From an uncultured Eubacterium sp. (GTDB lineage Bacteria > Bacillota > Clostridia > Peptostreptococcales > Anaerovoracaceae), in the NCBI GenBank assembly GCA_946555345.1, contig CAMNSS010000004.1, forward strand, positions 106,612-170,611: DNA of 64,000 bases. Reading direction: 5' to 3'. The position numbers and the translations under genes are program-made. The notes beneath the pieces are model-generated. The model made no database searches. It saw only the letters and a list, made by a program, of their open reading frames with translations, and was not told the DNA's origin. This document shows positions 59,272-64,000 of the stretch, in pieces (within the stretch, counting starts at the first letter, position 1; the number at the start of each line of letters is the position of its first letter).

Positions 59272-59679
59272 TTAGCTTTCCATCTGCTTTGCCAGAAAAC
59301 CTGCGCCGAGCTCGGCGGTTTTTATTTCCAGGTCAGACAGCTCTTGCCCTTCCGGCGGCAGAATGGTGACAGACCCGATGGGGTCTCCGTTTGAGAGAAT
59401 CGGAATCACGACCTTGGTGTTGTTCTTGTACTTGTTTTTATGCTGTATGATGTTATCAAGGTCTTCATCGATTTCCTTATTCATATAATCTTTTTGCTTC
59501 AAGCCTGAAACTGCCACAAATCGGTCCGTATCGGAAACCAGGACCGGCAGCCCTAAAATAGACGAGGCGGATTCCACGAAGGTTTCGGCAATCTGTCCAA
59601 GCTCGCTGATCGGCGAATACTTTTTCAGAATGACCTCTCCCGTAGTGCCGGTATAAATTTCAAGCGGGTCGCCTTCCCT
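59272..59679 (-). pseudogene. spoVT: Stage V sporulation protein T, 5'-truncated at a mobile-element boundary
   Basis: On the minus strand 136 codons match SpoVT from residue 29 on: REGDPLEIYTG, GEVILKKYSPISELG, then the GAF domain (LVSDTDRFVAVSGLKQKDY to ELGAGFLAKQME). The first 28 codons, which form the AbrB-like DNA-binding part (MKATGIVRRIDDLG...), are missing; a TGA (59682-59680) stands directly before the AGG codon at the break. SpoVT controls SigG-dependent genes in the forespore. An internal ATG at 59577 could only give a GAF domain. Toxin-antitoxin and partition genes start just beyond the break, so the gene appears cut by element insertion. Confidence 0.85.
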
Positions 59680-59703
59680 TCAAAATTCATAAGAGAAGAA
59701 ACC

Positions 59704-59715
59704 TTGAAATTTCAA
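59704..59715. repeat. Perfect palindrome next to the spoVT break
   Basis: TTGAAATTTCAA is a 12-bp perfect palindrome 25 bases from the point where spoVT similarity ends. Confidence 0.4.
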
Positions 59716-59822
59716 CGTGCTTCGACAATATCTGACTCCCTTTTTATAGAATTATAGAACAGGCGGATTAAATTGTCCAGAAGAAAAATTTAGCGGGAAT
59801 TTTTAGTTTGATGCATAAATCG

Positions 59823-59857
59823 TTGACGCCCTATTTCATGTACGCTATAATGTACGC
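59823..59857 (+). promoter_or_regulatory. Promoter and operator of the toxin-antitoxin pair
   Basis: TTGACG (59823-59828) and TATAAT (59846-59851) are 17 bases apart. TGTACGC occurs on both sides of the -10 box (59840-59846 and 59851-59857), resembling the TGTAC-containing operators of YefM-YoeB. Confidence 0.75.
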
Positions 59858-59874
59858 ATTAGGAGGAAAACCAT

Positions 59875-60135
59875 ATGATTAATGTCAATGTAACAAATTT
59901 GAGGAAAAACCTTTACGGGATACTGGAGCAGACCATAAAATACAACGAGCCTGTAAACATTTCAACAAAAAACGGCAATGCCATAATAATAAGTGAAGAG
60001 GATTATAAAGGTATTGTGGAAACCCTGTACCTGAGCTCCATTCCCGGAATGAAAGAAAAAATCATGGAAGGGATGGACACACCGCTGGATGAGTGCATTC
60101 CCGAAGCCGAGGTTGAGTGGCAATGCATGAAATAA
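59875..60135 (+). CDS. Antitoxin of the Phd/YefM family
   Basis: The 86-residue protein begins INVNVTNLRKNLYGILEQ, the DNA-binding Phd/YefM N-terminus, followed by VNISTKNGNAIIISEEDY and an acidic C-terminal tail that would wrap the toxin. AGGAGG precedes the ATG. It overlaps the toxin gene and should repress their shared promoter. Confidence 0.92.
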   Translation: MINVNVTNLRKNLYGILEQTIKYNEPVNISTKNGNAIIISEEDYKGIVETLYLSSIPGMKEKIMEGMDTPLDECIPEAEVEWQCMK

Positions 60136-60386
60136 AATATACCAAAAAGTCAGTCTCTGACATACAGAAGCTGAAAAGTGCCAAGCTGGATAAAAAAGCC
60201 AAGGCATTGATTGATGTTTTGCGCAATAACCCCTACCAGACGCCCGCTCCGTTCGAGAAACTACAGGGTGATCTGCATGGGGCGTATTCCCGCAGGATAA
60301 ACATCAAACACAGGCTTGTGTATTCCGTTGATGATGCGCAAAACACTGTAAAAATCATCAGCATATGGACGCACTATGAATTTTAA
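60123..60386 (+). CDS. Txe/YoeB family toxin (mRNA endonuclease)
   Basis: The 87-residue RelE-superfamily toxin has the YoeB blocks PAPFEKLQGDLHGAYSRRIN, HRLVYSVDD and a C-terminus ending THYEF, which supply the general base, arginine and terminal histidine-tyrosine used for ribosome-dependent mRNA cleavage. ATG at 60123 is taken; a GTG two codons earlier is possible. It overlaps the antitoxin gene by 13 bases. Confidence 0.92.
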   Translation: MHEIKYTKKSVSDIQKLKSAKLDKKAKALIDVLRNNPYQTPAPFEKLQGDLHGAYSRRINIKHRLVYSVDDAQNTVKIISIWTHYEF

Positions 60387-60467
60387 AATGCAGGCATGGC
60401 CGTCCCTGCGAAACGAGCAGAAAATCGGCTAAGTTATTAAAACAAGTTAAAAGTGTATATATCAAAG

Positions 60468-60507
60468 GCATACAGAAATGCTGGTACGCATAGCTGTATG
60501 CTTTTTT
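60468..60507 (+). terminator. Terminator after the toxin gene
   Basis: GCATACAG (60468-60475) pairs with CTGTATGC (60494-60501), followed by TTTTTT. Confidence 0.8.
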
Positions 60508-60579
60508 ATATAGATAAATGTTAAAGCAGAGAGGTCAAACAACGTAATGGAATTTAAAAAACCATAAGGAGGATGCAAT

Positions 60580-61377
60580 ATGTGCAAAGTAATAGCAATC
60601 GCCAACCAGAAAGGCGGAGTCGGAAAAACAACGACGGCAGTCGCCATGGGAGCGGCATTAACAGAGCTGGGGAAAAAGGTGCTATTGGTTGACGTCGATG
60701 ATTCCGGCAACCCATCCCTCACCAAAGCGATGATCGGGAACGTGGATGAAAGCATCACGGACCTGCTGGTGTACAGCCTTGTGGGGAAAACGAAAAACAT
60801 AAAAAAAGAACTGCCCGGCATCATATGCCACCATGGGGAAGGCATGGACATACTGCCCGCCGACGATAACTTGCCAGCGATTGCCGCAGGGATACATACC
60901 GTGCCAGAAGAAGAGCGGAAACGCCTGCTGCTCCGTGAGATCACCAGCATTGTGAAGCCGGATTATGACTACGTAATACTTGATGCCGCCCCGTCACTCA
61001 ACATGATGTCACTCAACATCCTGGCTGCGGCGGACGAAGCCATCATTGCGACACAGCCACAGGGAGCAGCGGAAAAAGGAGTGCGGGAACTGATCAAGGC
61101 GGCATGGCACATAACAGAGACCGCAAACCCTGCCCTCGTCATAAAAGGACTTTTGATCACGATGGTGGACAGCCGCACAAGCTACAACAAGAACATGGTC
61201 AGGGACATCACGGAAGGCTACACCGACATCGGCCTGAAAGTATACAGGACAACGATACCAAGGGCCGTGGCGGCTGAAAGCTGGGTGGAAAACAAAATGA
61301 GCATATTAAAGTCCGCCCCGTCAAGCAAGCCAGCGGCAGCATACAGGGCTTTCATTAAAGAGTACCTGGAATCATGA
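60580..61377 (+). CDS. parA: ParA family partition ATPase
   Basis: The 265-residue ATPase has the deviant Walker A KGGVGKTT (11-18), the A' motif VDVDDSGNPS in which the usual Q-G-N is S-G-N, and Walker B YVILDAAPSL. It has no N-terminal helix-turn-helix, so it is the small ParA/Soj type. AAGGAGG precedes the ATG and it overlaps parB as ATGA. On mobile elements such pairs keep the excised or plasmid form in daughter cells. Confidence 0.93.
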   Translation: MCKVIAIANQKGGVGKTTTAVAMGAALTELGKKVLLVDVDDSGNPSLTKAMIGNVDESITDLLVYSLVGKTKNIKKELPGIICHHGEGMDILPADDNLPAIAAGIHTVPEEERKRLLLREITSIVKPDYDYVILDAAPSLNMMSLNILAAADEAIIATQPQGAAEKGVRELIKAAWHITETANPALVIKGLLITMVDSRTSYNKNMVRDITEGYTDIGLKVYRTTIPRAVAAESWVENKMSILKSAPSSKPAAAYRAFIKEYLES

Positions 61378-62390
61378 CGGGGGACACAGCCATGGGAGAC
61401 ATGAAAAAAGAAATGATGCAGGAGCTGATGGGAAAAGGTCCGGCAAGCCTGTCAAAGGTGTTCGGGATAAACGAGGGGGATGGCACAAAAGAGCCTGCGG
61501 AGCAGATGATCCCAGCGGATAAAATACACCCGTCTGACAAGAACCCGTTCCGGGTGGAAATGAACGGGGAAATGATCGAGCTGATTGCGTCGATTAAAGA
61601 GAGGGGCATATTAGTCCCGCTCATACTGCGCCCCCACCCGGGTGTCGCTGGCGAATATGAAATCATTGCAGGACACAGGCGGTATTTTGCCGGATCACAC
61701 CTGAACTTGAAAGAATACCCCGCAACCACTAGAAACCTCACGGATGAGGAAGCGGACATCATCATGGTGGACAGCAACCTAAACCGTGAGAACATCAGCA
61801 TCAGCGAAAAGGCGTTTGCCTACAGGCTGAAATATGAAGCAATTAAAAGAACATCAGGCAGAAAATGCTGCGGGGAAGAAATGGGCAGGCGAAACTCCCC
61901 CATTAAAAAGAGTTCGGGAATCATTGCCGAACAGATGGGCGTCAGTGACAGGACCATTAAGGATTATGTCCGCCTTACATACCTTTCAAGGAAAATGCTG
62001 GATGTGGTGGACCAGAAGGAACTGCCGATAAAGGCTGCCGTCCAGCTTTCTTACCTACCGTTAAAGGCACAGGATTTTTTGCACAGCATCATGGAAGCGG
62101 AAAACTTGAAAATAGACCTTGATGCCGCAAAAATGCTGAAAGAGCAATTTGCGGAAGTGGAAAATGAAAGAATAAGCATGGATGACGTGTACGGATTCCT
62201 GAAATCAGCACAGATGCGCAAGCCTTTGGAATCCAAACCAAAGGCAGCCATAAAAATCAATAAATCCGCAAGGAAGCGGTTTTTCCCGCAAAGTTATGAC
62301 GATTACCAAATTCAGCAGGTCATCGAGGAATTGCTAGGTGCATGGGCAAGGGAACACAACCCGGAATTTGAAAATGGAGGCAGCAATTAA
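61374..62390 (+). CDS. parB: ParB/Spo0J-like partition protein
   Basis: The 338-residue protein has the ParB N-terminal CTPase-type block (IHPSDKNPFRVE, LVPLILRPH, YEIIAGHRRYFA), the NLNRENISISEKAFAY segment and a helix-turn-helix (IAEQMGVSDRTIKDYVRLTYLS). It is longer than chromosomal Spo0J and looks like the ParB proteins of Clostridial integrative elements. Its start overlaps parA. Confidence 0.92.
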   Translation: MTGDTAMGDMKKEMMQELMGKGPASLSKVFGINEGDGTKEPAEQMIPADKIHPSDKNPFRVEMNGEMIELIASIKERGILVPLILRPHPGVAGEYEIIAGHRRYFAGSHLNLKEYPATTRNLTDEEADIIMVDSNLNRENISISEKAFAYRLKYEAIKRTSGRKCCGEEMGRRNSPIKKSSGIIAEQMGVSDRTIKDYVRLTYLSRKMLDVVDQKELPIKAAVQLSYLPLKAQDFLHSIMEAENLKIDLDAAKMLKEQFAEVENERISMDDVYGFLKSAQMRKPLESKPKAAIKINKSARKRFFPQSYDDYQIQQVIEELLGAWAREHNPEFENGGSN

Positions 62391-62391
62391 T

Positions 62392-63279
62392 ATGGACAGA
62401 CATACGTTCAGGGATGGGGAAGGGCATACAATGAGACGGGTAATCAGGGTGTTCCCGCAATGGACTAGCTACACCCCGGACGATGCATATGCATTTGTCG
62501 GGATGCCGCCCATGAAACAGCTCATCCCTGCCCATGACGAGGTGCATATATCCTGTACGTTTACATGGGACAGGGATTATTGCCGGGACTTGCAATTCCA
62601 GTGGGAAGGGGCAACGGACAAGCCCGTGAGGCTGGGCGGGGCAGCGTTTGGGTCGCCGTCAGATAACTTTATCCCAGGGATGTACATTAAGCGCAATATT
62701 ATATTTACCACACGGGGCTGCAACAACGGCTGCCCGTGGTGCATCGTGCCAAAGCTGGAAGGCCGGCTAAAAGAGCTGCCAATCCATCCGGGGAACTGGA
62801 TACAGGACAACAATTTTTTGCAGGCATCCAGGCAGCACAAGGACAAGGTGTTTGCCATGCTGCGCACCCAGCAGGGCATATGCTTCAAGGGCGGCTTGGA
62901 GCCGAGTTTAATCGACGACCATTTCCTCCAAAACATTACCAGCCTGCGGATCAAGGAACTGTGGCTTGCCTGTGACACTGATGCAAGCGTGGCGGCATTG
63001 CAGAAGGCGTGCAGAAAGCTAGAAAAGGCAGGGTTTAACCGCAACAAAATACATTGCTATGCACTGTCTTATGGCAGGGACATGGAAGCGGACGAGGCAA
63101 GGCTCAGGGCGATCTACGAAGCAGGCGCAATGCCGTTCATGCAACTCTACAGGGATTACAGGGGCAAAAAAACGGAATACCCTAGGGAATGGAACAGGTT
63201 CGCCCGCCAGTGGCAGCGCCCCGCAGCAATAAAAGCGCACATGAAATGCGGGACAACTTGGGAAGATTATAAAACATAA
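62392..63279 (+). CDS. Radical SAM protein of a phage/element type
   Basis: The 295-residue product has the cluster motif GCNNGCPWC (C-x3-C-x2-C) about residue 110, followed by a partial TIM-barrel with LEPSLIDDHFL. The N-terminus (VIRVFPQWTSYTPDDAYAF) is not a SPASM or other known domain. It resembles uncharacterised radical SAM proteins encoded on phages and integrative elements next to DNA methylases. Starts at 62374, 62392 and 62431 are all possible; GGAGG at 62376 supports 62392. The substrate is unknown; nucleic acid modification is a guess from context. Confidence 0.75.
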   Translation: MDRHTFRDGEGHTMRRVIRVFPQWTSYTPDDAYAFVGMPPMKQLIPAHDEVHISCTFTWDRDYCRDLQFQWEGATDKPVRLGGAAFGSPSDNFIPGMYIKRNIIFTTRGCNNGCPWCIVPKLEGRLKELPIHPGNWIQDNNFLQASRQHKDKVFAMLRTQQGICFKGGLEPSLIDDHFLQNITSLRIKELWLACDTDASVAALQKACRKLEKAGFNRNKIHCYALSYGRDMEADEARLRAIYEAGAMPFMQLYRDYRGKKTEYPREWNRFARQWQRPAAIKAHMKCGTTWEDYKT

Positions 63280-63294
63280 ATTGGAGAATTAAAA

Positions 63295-63738
63295 ATGAAC
63301 ACCAGTGTAATGTTTAGCAACAAAACCGACCAATGGGAAACACCGCAAGGGCTATTTGATGCACTGAACCATGAGTTTACGTTTGAGGTTGATGTATGCG
63401 CACTCCCAGAGAATGCGAAGTGCAAGCAATACTATACGCCGGAAACTGACGGGCTGTCCCAAAACTGGGACAAAAGGTGCTGGTGCAATCCCCCGTATGG
63501 GCGGGAAATTGGAAAGTGGGTGAAAAAAGCAACGGAATCAGTGAATGATGGCTGCCCGCTGGTGGTGATGCTTCTCCCCGCAAGGACGGACACACGGTGG
63601 TTTCATGACTATATATATAAGAAGCATGAAACCAGGTTTTTAAGAGGGAGATTGAAATTTGGAAACAGCAAAAATGGCGCACCATTCCCAAACATGGTCG
63701 TGGTTATGAAAAAGAAGGAGGTGCAATATGGTCGTTGA
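63295..63738 (+). CDS. Phage-type DNA N-6-adenine methyltransferase
   Basis: The 147-residue protein matches the phage Dam family (PF05869): DQWETPQGLFDAL, FEVDVCALPENAKC, catalytic WCNPPYGREIG and LPARTDTRWFHDYI. It adds a methyl group to N6 of adenine in double-stranded DNA, often to guard element DNA from restriction. TTGGAGAA lies before the ATG. Length is typical of this compact family. Confidence 0.93.
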   Translation: MNTSVMFSNKTDQWETPQGLFDALNHEFTFEVDVCALPENAKCKQYYTPETDGLSQNWDKRCWCNPPYGREIGKWVKKATESVNDGCPLVVMLLPARTDTRWFHDYIYKKHETRFLRGRLKFGNSKNGAPFPNMVVVMKKKEVQYGR

Positions 63739-63802
63739 ATATTTAAAAGGAAAACGCAAGATGCCGAAAAAGTGCCAGATCGAATGCGGGGCGTGTCAAT
63801 GA
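63728..63802 (+). CDS. 24-residue cysteine motif ORF ending in UGA
   Basis: Behind a very strong AAGGAGGTG site, ATG at 63728 opens a frame ending at TGA 63800-63802. The peptide ends KKCQIECGACQ, with cysteines spaced C-x3-C-x2-C. The same frame stays open after the TGA to the end of the window and still looks coding (TCRQLGFNHPQKKG). It may be a real short peptide or a longer gene cut by a nonsense codon. Confidence 0.4.
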   Translation: MVVEYLKGKRKMPKKCQIECGACQ

Positions 63803-63877
63803 AACTTACATTACAACACATTTGAAATGACGTGCAGACAGCTTGGATTTAACCACCCGCAAAAGAAAGGAACACAA

Positions 63878-64000
63878 ATGATTGAATACATAAAACAGCT
63901 CAAGGAGCTTGAAGCGATGGAACTGGTTGACTGTGCCAAGCAGGGCAGGATCAAGCGGGCGAAAGAAATCATCGGGCAGGAAAATAATGATGCCCTGGCA
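63878..64000 (+). CDS. Hypothetical element protein (partial)
   Basis: An ATG behind AAAGGAACACAA opens a frame that leaves the window after 41 codons (MIEYIKQLKELEAMELVD...). It is charged and probably helical. No family recognised; it is in the same frame as the 24-residue ORF upstream. Confidence 0.5.
   Translation, partial: MIEYIKQLKELEAMELVDCAKQGRIKRAKEIIGQENNDALA

What the first reader, a model, noticed from the sequence alone, without database searches (positions are those of the whole stretch)
59272..59720. spoVT cut at codon 28/29 by the edge of a mobile element: possible sporulation-gene intervening element
Seen: SpoVT similarity begins exactly at REGDPLEI, the 5' 28 codons are absent, a stop stands at the break, and toxin-antitoxin, parAB, radical SAM and phage Dam genes begin within 200 bases. 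Known: elements such as skin (sigK) sit in sporulation genes and are excised by a recombinase in the mother cell to restore the gene. Inference: the missing 5' end of spoVT may lie at the far end of this element, so that excision rebuilds spoVT. SpoVT acts in the forespore, where excision would be inherited by the spore, so the logic would differ from skin.
Basis: partly seen in the sequence, partly recalled or inferred. Interest (0 to 1): 0.75.

Follow-up and report, generated by a model that had tools for sequence, protein, structure and literature searches.

The report
Mobile elements that split spoVT
The sporulation gene spoVT is cut here just before codon 29 by the edge of a phage-like element, and in other bacteria it is cut within a few bases of that spot and joined in frame to a DNA recombinase, so the spot is likely a shared landing site from which excision would be predicted to rebuild the gene.

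Summary
SpoVT residues 29-163 lie at window 59272-59679 (-). A TGA stands at the break, and a phd/yoeB-parA-parB-radical SAM-Dam segment follows. The contig ends at window base 64000, so the far end cannot be read. The 5' piece is absent from the assembly, but so are neighbouring genes (cls, mtaD, murJ, hup), so that absence does not test the idea.

Public proteins include an intact 163-aa SpoVT identical over all 135 residues; the broken form is listed for 16 contigs.

The main new result came from outside the window. At four other loci spoVT is cut within about 6 bp of the same place, with a large serine recombinase fused in frame to SpoVT. A protein search gave 1382 hits; the 120 listed are all such fusions and none keeps the AbrB N-terminus. 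One pair has identical SpoVT parts under recombinases 49% identical; another has recombinases 99.8% identical on SpoVT parts 65% identical, which points to repeated site-specific insertion. One carrier is a phage.

Insertion at a conserved attB in spoVT is therefore well supported. Excision during sporulation is predicted and untested; no 5' piece was seen at any element end.

The parts
59272..59679 (-). 3' part of spoVT: residues 29-163 (135 aa), C-terminal domain complete, the first 28 residues of the DNA-binding AbrB N-terminus absent
   Evidence: SpoVT_C; TIGR02851 positions 28-180; 100% identical to intact P0001 over 135 aa
59679..59680 (.). junction between spoVT codon 29 and foreign DNA (proposed att half-site)
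   Evidence: comparison with intact relatives and with fusion junctions
59680..59682 (-). in-frame TGA immediately upstream of codon 29
59655..59664 (+). left arm of a 10-bp perfect inverted repeat around the junction (inside spoVT)
   Evidence: 8 of 5000 shuffles and 5 of 3000 host positions reach it; found post hoc, centre 4 bp off the break
59703..59712 (+). right arm of the inverted repeat (inside the element); overlaps a 12-bp palindrome 59704-59715
59875..60135 (+). phd/yefM-type antitoxin gene
   Evidence: Pfam PhdYeFM_antitox 1.7e-12
60123..60386 (+). yoeB/relE-type toxin gene of the TA pair
   Evidence: Pfam YoeB_toxin 6.9e-13; phrog_1213
60580..61377 (+). parA
   Evidence: Pfam AAA_31 8.9e-41; phrog_164
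61374..62390 (+). parB
   Evidence: Pfam ParB_N 1.4e-15; phrog_4715
62392..63279 (+). phage-type radical SAM gene (six IMG/VR relatives, 62-65% identical)
   Evidence: phrog_9298 4.6e-24; Pfam Radical_SAM only below cut-off
63295..63738 (+). phage-type DNA N6-adenine methyltransferase (Dam)
   Evidence: Pfam Dam 2e-33; phrog_111 4.1e-59
59680..64000 (.). visible 4.3 kb of the element; runs off the contig end; tetranucleotide profile further from the host than any of 55 overlapping host windows

Best explanation
spoVT is cut just before codon 29 by the edge of a phage-like element, most likely because the element integrated site-specifically at a conserved attachment site inside spoVT that other large serine recombinase elements also use, and its excision would be predicted to rejoin the gene. 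Shown: the break; the foreign segment; intact alleles of the same protein; four other loci where a serine recombinase frame abuts spoVT within about 6 bp of the same position; protein pairs with the same SpoVT part under different recombinases, and the reverse. Inferred: that this element carries a site-specific recombinase near the unseen spoVT 5' piece (as in skin); that excision restores spoVT; that excision is tied to sporulation. In the related family the recombinase frame runs through the junction into spoVT, so integrated copies could encode a recombinase with a SpoVT tail.
For: Break and foreign DNA. Intact alleles: 80 of the 80 named-genome loci kept are continuous over codons 1-36; P0001 intact and 100% identical over 135 aa (1 contig), P0002 99% identical (83 contigs). 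Broken 101-aa form P0091 listed for 16 contigs, longest 170611 b = the length of this contig; the other 15 contigs were not seen. Same-site recurrence: L251/L271, MT836658.1 = L270, L272 and L273. Protein search: 1382 hits, 120 of the 120 listed carry SpoVT_C plus Recombinase plus zinc ribbon; SpoVT part begins at [GVC]DPLEI in 120 of 120, AbrB motif in 0 of 120, SpoVT part at least 140 aa in all 118 measured. Mobility: of 5778 pairs among 108 full-length fusions, 27 have SpoVT_C >=90% with recombinase <=65% (P0261/P0265: 100% and 49%), 28 have recombinase >=90% with SpoVT_C <=70% (P0321/P0342: 99.8% and 65%) (pairs share members and are not independent). Phage carrier L272 with overlapping contig L275: sheath, tail tube, sheath initiator, YqbQ-like. 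Contig L274 stops at ..AGTAGTGGTGA, the proposed core.
Against: No recombinase in the visible 4.3 kb, and no relative of the fusion-type recombinase at E<=1e-3 in the own-genome stretches searched (window, whole C32, 69 contig-end stretches of 4 kb, small loci). No 5' spoVT piece at any element end, here or in L270-L277. In the fusion family the recombinase lies on the spoVT 3' side, where this element has phd-yoeB-parAB, so this element is a different class or the opposite orientation. The inverted repeat centre is 4 bp off the break. The break here is up to about 6 bp from the main fusion break (codon 29 versus 30/31).
Confidence: 0.7

Rival explanations
1. Dead insertion: the element integrated (or integrated and then caused a deletion), spoVT is a permanent pseudogene, and the bacterium no longer needs it or no longer sporulates well.
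For: The genes next to spoVT in relatives (cls, mtaD, murJ, hup) are all missing from the assembly. 46 of 61 genomes searched, 33 of them same-genus, have no SpoVT match, so absence of sporulation genes is common in this genus, though many of these genomes are incomplete.
Against: HU (PF00216) is absent from the whole assembly although 9 of 14 control genomes ring, so an unassembled or mis-binned stretch is likelier than a deletion. SpoIVA is present. The 135-residue fragment is 100% identical to an intact allele, with no decay.
Confidence: 0.2
2. Assembly chimera: spoVT and phage DNA from different molecules were joined at 59679.
For: The contig ends 4.3 kb further on without an overlapping partner end, and composition changes at the junction.
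Against: The broken 101-aa protein is listed for 16 contigs (the junction was seen in this one only), and independent elements cut spoVT at nearly the same position.
Confidence: 0.05
3. For the wider family: the recombinase::SpoVT_C protein is an old, domesticated gene fusion with its own function, not a gene interrupted by a mobile element.
For: The in-frame fusion is kept in 120 of the 120 listed proteins, with a SpoVT part of at least 140 aa in all 118 measured. For the SpoVT type of most fusions I found no near intact relative in the collections I could still search: other records were 47% identical or less among phages and 44% or less among plasmids, and the nearest of the 80 intact loci was 61%.
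Against: Recombinase and SpoVT parts are exchanged independently. Fusions also occur with other SpoVT types (L272, L273), on a phage with tail genes, and the contig L274/L277, whose recombinase frame stops at the junction core, carries a MobC gene.
Confidence: 0.2

Closest known systems
skin (sigK-intervening element) of Bacillus subtilis and Clostridioides difficile
   Same: A prophage-like element inside a sporulation regulator gene with a serine recombinase; one related carrier here (L272/L275) has tail genes including a Pfam YQBQ-like protein; that yqbQ is a skin gene is from recall.
   Different: sigK acts in the mother cell, whose chromosome is discarded (PMC4191935 passages); spoVT belongs to the forespore line (SigF/SigG control in C. 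difficile, PMC3789822 passages). Excision is not shown here. In the spoVT family the recombinase is fused in frame to the 3' gene piece.
SPbeta in spsM, vfbin in spoVFB, vrin in spoVR (PMC4191935, passages)
   Same: Phage-like elements inside sporulation genes; excision rejoins spsM during sporulation.
   Different: Described there as mother-cell events or genes; I did not search that paper for spoVT.
gin in gerE of Bacillus cereus (PMC5595907, passages)
   Same: Insertion in a small sporulation transcription-factor gene; serine recombinases; no phage genes (compare L251/L271, where I saw no phage structural gene by eye).
   Different: GerE works in the mother cell; three recombinase genes; spoVT not mentioned (0 matches).
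yin in yabG of Clostridium botulinum (PMC10747680, passages)
   Same: Prophage-like, serine recombinase, integrated and circular forms coexist in a culture.
   Different: SigK-controlled gene; recombinase beside the 5' gene piece; spoVT not mentioned (0 matches).
Site-specific large serine recombinases catalogued by target gene (PMC10083194, passages)
   Same: Many diverged recombinases sharing one target gene is used there as the sign of site specificity.
   Different: 'spoV' and 'AbrB' have 0 matches in its main text; its supplements were not available to me.

Membership tests
sporulation-gene intervening element (skin-like) | Foreign element lies inside the coding region of a sporulation gene | tested here: met
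sporulation-gene intervening element (skin-like) | The two gene pieces flank the element, so precise excision restores the frame | tested here: inconclusive
   3' piece present; 5' piece not in the assembly, but the contig ends and neighbouring genes are missing too
sporulation-gene intervening element (skin-like) | Element encodes a site-specific recombinase | tested here: inconclusive
   none in the visible 4.3 kb; present and adjacent to spoVT in the related loci
sporulation-gene intervening element (skin-like) | Short direct repeat (core) at both ends | not testable with these tools
   only one end can be read
sporulation-gene intervening element (skin-like) | Excision during sporulation | not testable with these tools
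   needs cells; contig L274 stopping at the core is only a hint
sporulation-gene intervening element (skin-like) | Target gene is expressed in the mother cell (true of the described cases I saw) | tested here: not met
   from literature, not from this host: SpoVT belongs to the forespore line (PMC3789822); this bars the mother-cell logic but not a skin-like mechanism
large serine recombinase (fusion family, not the window) | Resolvase N-terminal, Recombinase and zinc beta ribbon domains | tested here: met
   all three in L270 and P0241; 120 of 120 listed proteins have Recombinase plus zinc ribbon, a few lack the Resolvase domain
prophage | Phage structural genes on the element | tested here: inconclusive
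   the visible 4.3 kb has phage-type radical SAM and Dam genes but no structural gene; structural genes are seen in the related L272/L275

The most novel reading that the evidence does not exclude
spoVT codons 29-31 are a widespread attachment site for a class of intervening elements in a forespore gene. The integrated recombinase reads through the site and gains a SpoVT_C tail, so the protein would sense that it is integrated, and perhaps the sporulation state, and excision in the forespore would restore SpoVT. Because that excision would be inherited, elements such as the one in the window would hold on as a circle through ParAB partition and the toxin-antitoxin pair.
Probability: 0.25. Interest if true: 0.88.

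Novelty: new variant of a known kind. Interest (0 to 1): 0.7.

Why it matters
The described elements that split and rebuild sporulation genes, as far as I saw, sit in mother-cell genes, where the rearranged chromosome is thrown away. A forespore regulator used again and again as a landing site asks how an element can survive when its excision would be inherited by the spore. In C. difficile a spoVT mutant gave no heat-resistant spores, while in B. subtilis the mutant is only reduced (PMC3789822 passages), so insertion there should harm or block spore formation unless it is undone. At least 120 recombinase::SpoVT_C proteins (those listed of 1382 hits), some named 'stage V sporulation protein T' by their sources, would be integrated elements, or a new kind of recombinase, rather than plain SpoVT. 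Either reading can be tested directly.

Tried and rejected
Reading the far end: not possible, the contig ends at window base 64000. I searched for the 5' piece in the own genome (besides the broken gene, an AbrB paralogue at C32:2583-2732, 62% identical to the SpoVT N-terminal query, an 80-aa ORF, and three weak matches with E from 0.01 to 0.5), looked at contig ends (nine end-to-end exact overlaps of 14-55 bases, none with C4's right end) and looked for the neighbour genes (none found). Second copy of the element in this genome: none, only a 72-base match of 77% on C12. DNA or protein relatives of the visible element in the phage, plasmid and IMG/VR collections: none close (best Dam 72%, radical SAM 65%, ParA 40%, ParB none); phage record MT837014.1, which matched up to the break, turned out to carry an intact spoVT. 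ParB: 82 of 394 genomes matched at E<=1e-20, nearest 41%; of 11 stretches fetched I read the genes of three, from two genomes; the nearest is an element with a MobL relaxase and a serine recombinase whose edge lies beside a DUF255 gene. In the protein collection ParB has one 82% relative, then 50%. Far end of contig L274/L277: begins next to a MobC gene, no spoVT. 5' spoVT fragments among phage-collection records: the 56 records were judged from the listing (SpoVT or AbrB-type genes) and not examined one by one. Relaxed selection on SpoVT in fusions (72 of 80 intact loci could be read): of 26 columns at least 95% conserved in intact proteins, 20 are at least 95% conserved in fusions; two differ almost completely (P, kept in 4% of fusions, and K, in none), which may be a clade trait, so I draw no conclusion. 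The inverted repeat at the junction is reported but not relied on, being post hoc and 4 bp off centre. Papers (one open library, ten searches): none holds spoVT with 'intervening element', with 'serine recombinase', or six phrases for insertion in spoVT; spoVT with 'attB' gave one paper and spoVT with 'prophage' and 'integrase' eleven, seen as listings only, none with a title about insertion in spoVT. Other listings. Only passages of PMC5595907, PMC4191935, PMC10747680, PMC3789822, PMC10083194 and PMC5553647 were seen.

Full report
What is in the window. The minus strand carries SpoVT from residue 29 to its end (REGDPLEI...FLAKQMES, 59679-59272), with TGA as the codon just before residue 29. 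Pfam SpoVT_C covers residues 26-134 and TIGR02851 aligns from model position 28. Left of it the gene order lon-engB-hpt-pduL matches relatives (these gene names, and cls, mtaD, murJ and hup below, are from recall of the sequences, not from a family search, except HU). Right of it the order is foreign: a Phd/YoeB toxin-antitoxin pair, ParA, ParB, a phage-type radical SAM protein and a phage-type Dam methylase. The 4.3 kb differ in tetranucleotide profile from the host more than any of 55 overlapping host windows do (0.284 against a maximum of 0.229).

What cannot be read. The window ends where contig C4 ends. In the six closest relatives read, cls, mtaD and murJ follow on one side of spoVT (in one with a small ORF between), and hup is listed further on in three (L034, L036, L115); the orientation of spoVT varies. 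In this assembly I found none of cls, mtaD, murJ; 10 kb of DNA from that side of one relative matched only the spoVT fragment; a joined query of four genes from that side, hup included, gave nothing; and Pfam HU gives no match although 9 of 14 control genomes ring. The first four searches have no positive control in this genome. HU is close to universal in such bacteria (from recall), so the simplest reading is that this chromosome stretch, and with it the other end of the element, was not assembled or was binned elsewhere. The absence of the 28 codons therefore says little.

Host and alleles. A SpoVT match and a SpoIVA match were each found in 15 of 61 genomes, 14 of them the same, this one included. 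Within the genus 4 of 37 have SpoVT and 5 of 37 SpoIVA, many of those genomes being incomplete, so the host is one of the minority that keep sporulation genes. SpoVT is intact over codons 1-36 in all 80 named-genome loci kept (80 of 565 confirmed). In the protein collection the nearest 120 of 4058 include 119 with the AbrB domain; P0001 is intact and identical over the 135 residues (one contig), P0002 is 99% identical and listed for 83 contigs, and the one exception, P0091, is the broken 101-aa form, listed for 16 contigs with the longest 170611 bases, the length of C4. So the broken form is recorded more than once and intact alleles exist; I did not see the other 15 contigs. The nearest names are Candidatus Allocopromorpha and Anaerovoracaceae; the species itself is not named.

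The same spot elsewhere. An IMG/VR scan with the SpoVT fragment gave five loci; three had the N-terminus, one matched from residue 11 of the N-terminal query, and one (L251) only from residue 28 on, directly after a serine recombinase in the same frame. A phage-collection record from human faeces, MT836658.1 (L270), also matched only from residue 28: a 700-aa frame holds a complete serine recombinase and then SpoVT from SEGDPLEI to its C-terminus; the two fusions are 51% identical over 670 residues. A protein search with the SpoVT end of that fusion returned 1382 proteins; the 120 listed all carry SpoVT_C with Recombinase and zinc ribbon. In all 120 the SpoVT part begins at the same residues (G, V or C followed by DPLEI); of the 118 with the plain motif, the residue two before it is S in 104, N in 9, R in 2, C in 2 and I in 1, and the SpoVT part is at least 140 aa in every one; no AbrB motif is present in any of the 120. 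The list is biased: it is ranked by likeness to one host clade, and by length and reading frame it can only show in-frame fusions. The 1262 hits not listed were not seen.

Why this looks like integration and not one old fusion. Among 108 full-length fusions (5778 pairs, not independent), 27 pairs have SpoVT parts at least 90% identical but recombinases at most 65% identical (P0261/P0265: 100% and 49%), and 28 pairs have recombinases at least 90% identical but SpoVT parts at most 70% identical (P0321/P0342: 99.8% and 65%). The same host gene thus meets different elements, and the same element meets different hosts, at one site. Carriers differ in kind: L272 and the overlapping contig L275 (whose recombinase runs off the contig before spoVT) have phage tail sheath, tail tube, sheath initiator and a YqbQ-like protein; L273 has a second serine recombinase and L274/L277 a MobC gene; L251/L271 carry what look like sugar-nucleotide genes (by eye). 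L272 and L273 sit in SpoVT types that keep KKYSP, unlike most listed fusions.

The junctions side by side. On the coding strand L272 and L273 read GTCAATGTTATCAGTAGTGGTGAYCC, L270 and L271 read variants of this, and the window reads AATTTTGAAGGGAAGGCGACCC. spoVT sequence is regained at codon 30 or 31 in the family and at codon 29 here, up to about 6 bp apart. Contig L274 stops at ..AGTAGTGGTGA, the point where integrated and circular forms would part; that is only a hint of both forms in one sample. A small ORF lies just before the recombinase in L272/L275, L273 and L274, with a weak match in L270 (26-39% identity) and no family match; by position it is a candidate directionality factor. No 5' spoVT piece was found in L270-L277.

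How it most likely works. Shown: foreign DNA at a repeatedly used place in spoVT. Inferred: a serine recombinase joins an element site to a short conserved stretch of spoVT around codons 29-31; excision would restore the full frame; in this window the recombinase would lie at the unseen 5' side, as in skin and yin (PMC10747680 passages), because the 3' side has none. Sporulation control is a prediction from the known elements (PMC4191935 and PMC5595907 passages). SpoVT works in the forespore (PMC3789822 passages), so excision there would be inherited; ParAB and the toxin-antitoxin pair could keep the circle, which is speculation.

Comparison and novelty. It works like a skin-type intervening element, but membership is not established for the window: one defining feature is met, two are inconclusive, two cannot be tested, and the mother-cell setting of the described cases is not met. 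I found no paper that names spoVT as such a target (one open library only). I rate it a new variant of a known kind.

Noticed in passing
   Followed up: partly
L272:6020-6337, L273:9635-9853, L274:9626-9886, L270:8888-9073: A conserved small ORF of unknown family just upstream of the spoVT-site recombinase: candidate recombination directionality factor (weak in L270).
   Followed up: partly
L274:11790 (contig IMGVR_UViG_3300029705_005362): The contig ends at the proposed attachment core, as expected if integrated and excised forms coexist in the sample.
   Followed up: partly
GenBank MT835517, MT835608, MT835633, MT836060, MT837014, MT837601, MT838513: Unverified 'Bacteriophage sp.' records from human faeces that match the full length of spoVT; MT837014.1, the one I read of these, looks like bacterial chromosome.
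   Followed up: partly
61 genomes: 33 of 36 other same-genus genomes have no SpoVT match and 32 no SpoIVA match: sporulation genes seem absent from much of this genus, though many of the genomes are incomplete.
   Followed up: no
G000 contig ends: Nine pairs of contig ends share exact overlaps (seven of 55 bases, one of 25, one of 14), as in an assembly graph with k=55; C4's right end has no partner.
   Followed up: yes
fusion proteins P0242-P0361: Two positions nearly invariant in intact SpoVT (P after KKYS, and a K near the C-terminus) are changed in almost all of the 108 full-length fusions.
   Followed up: partly
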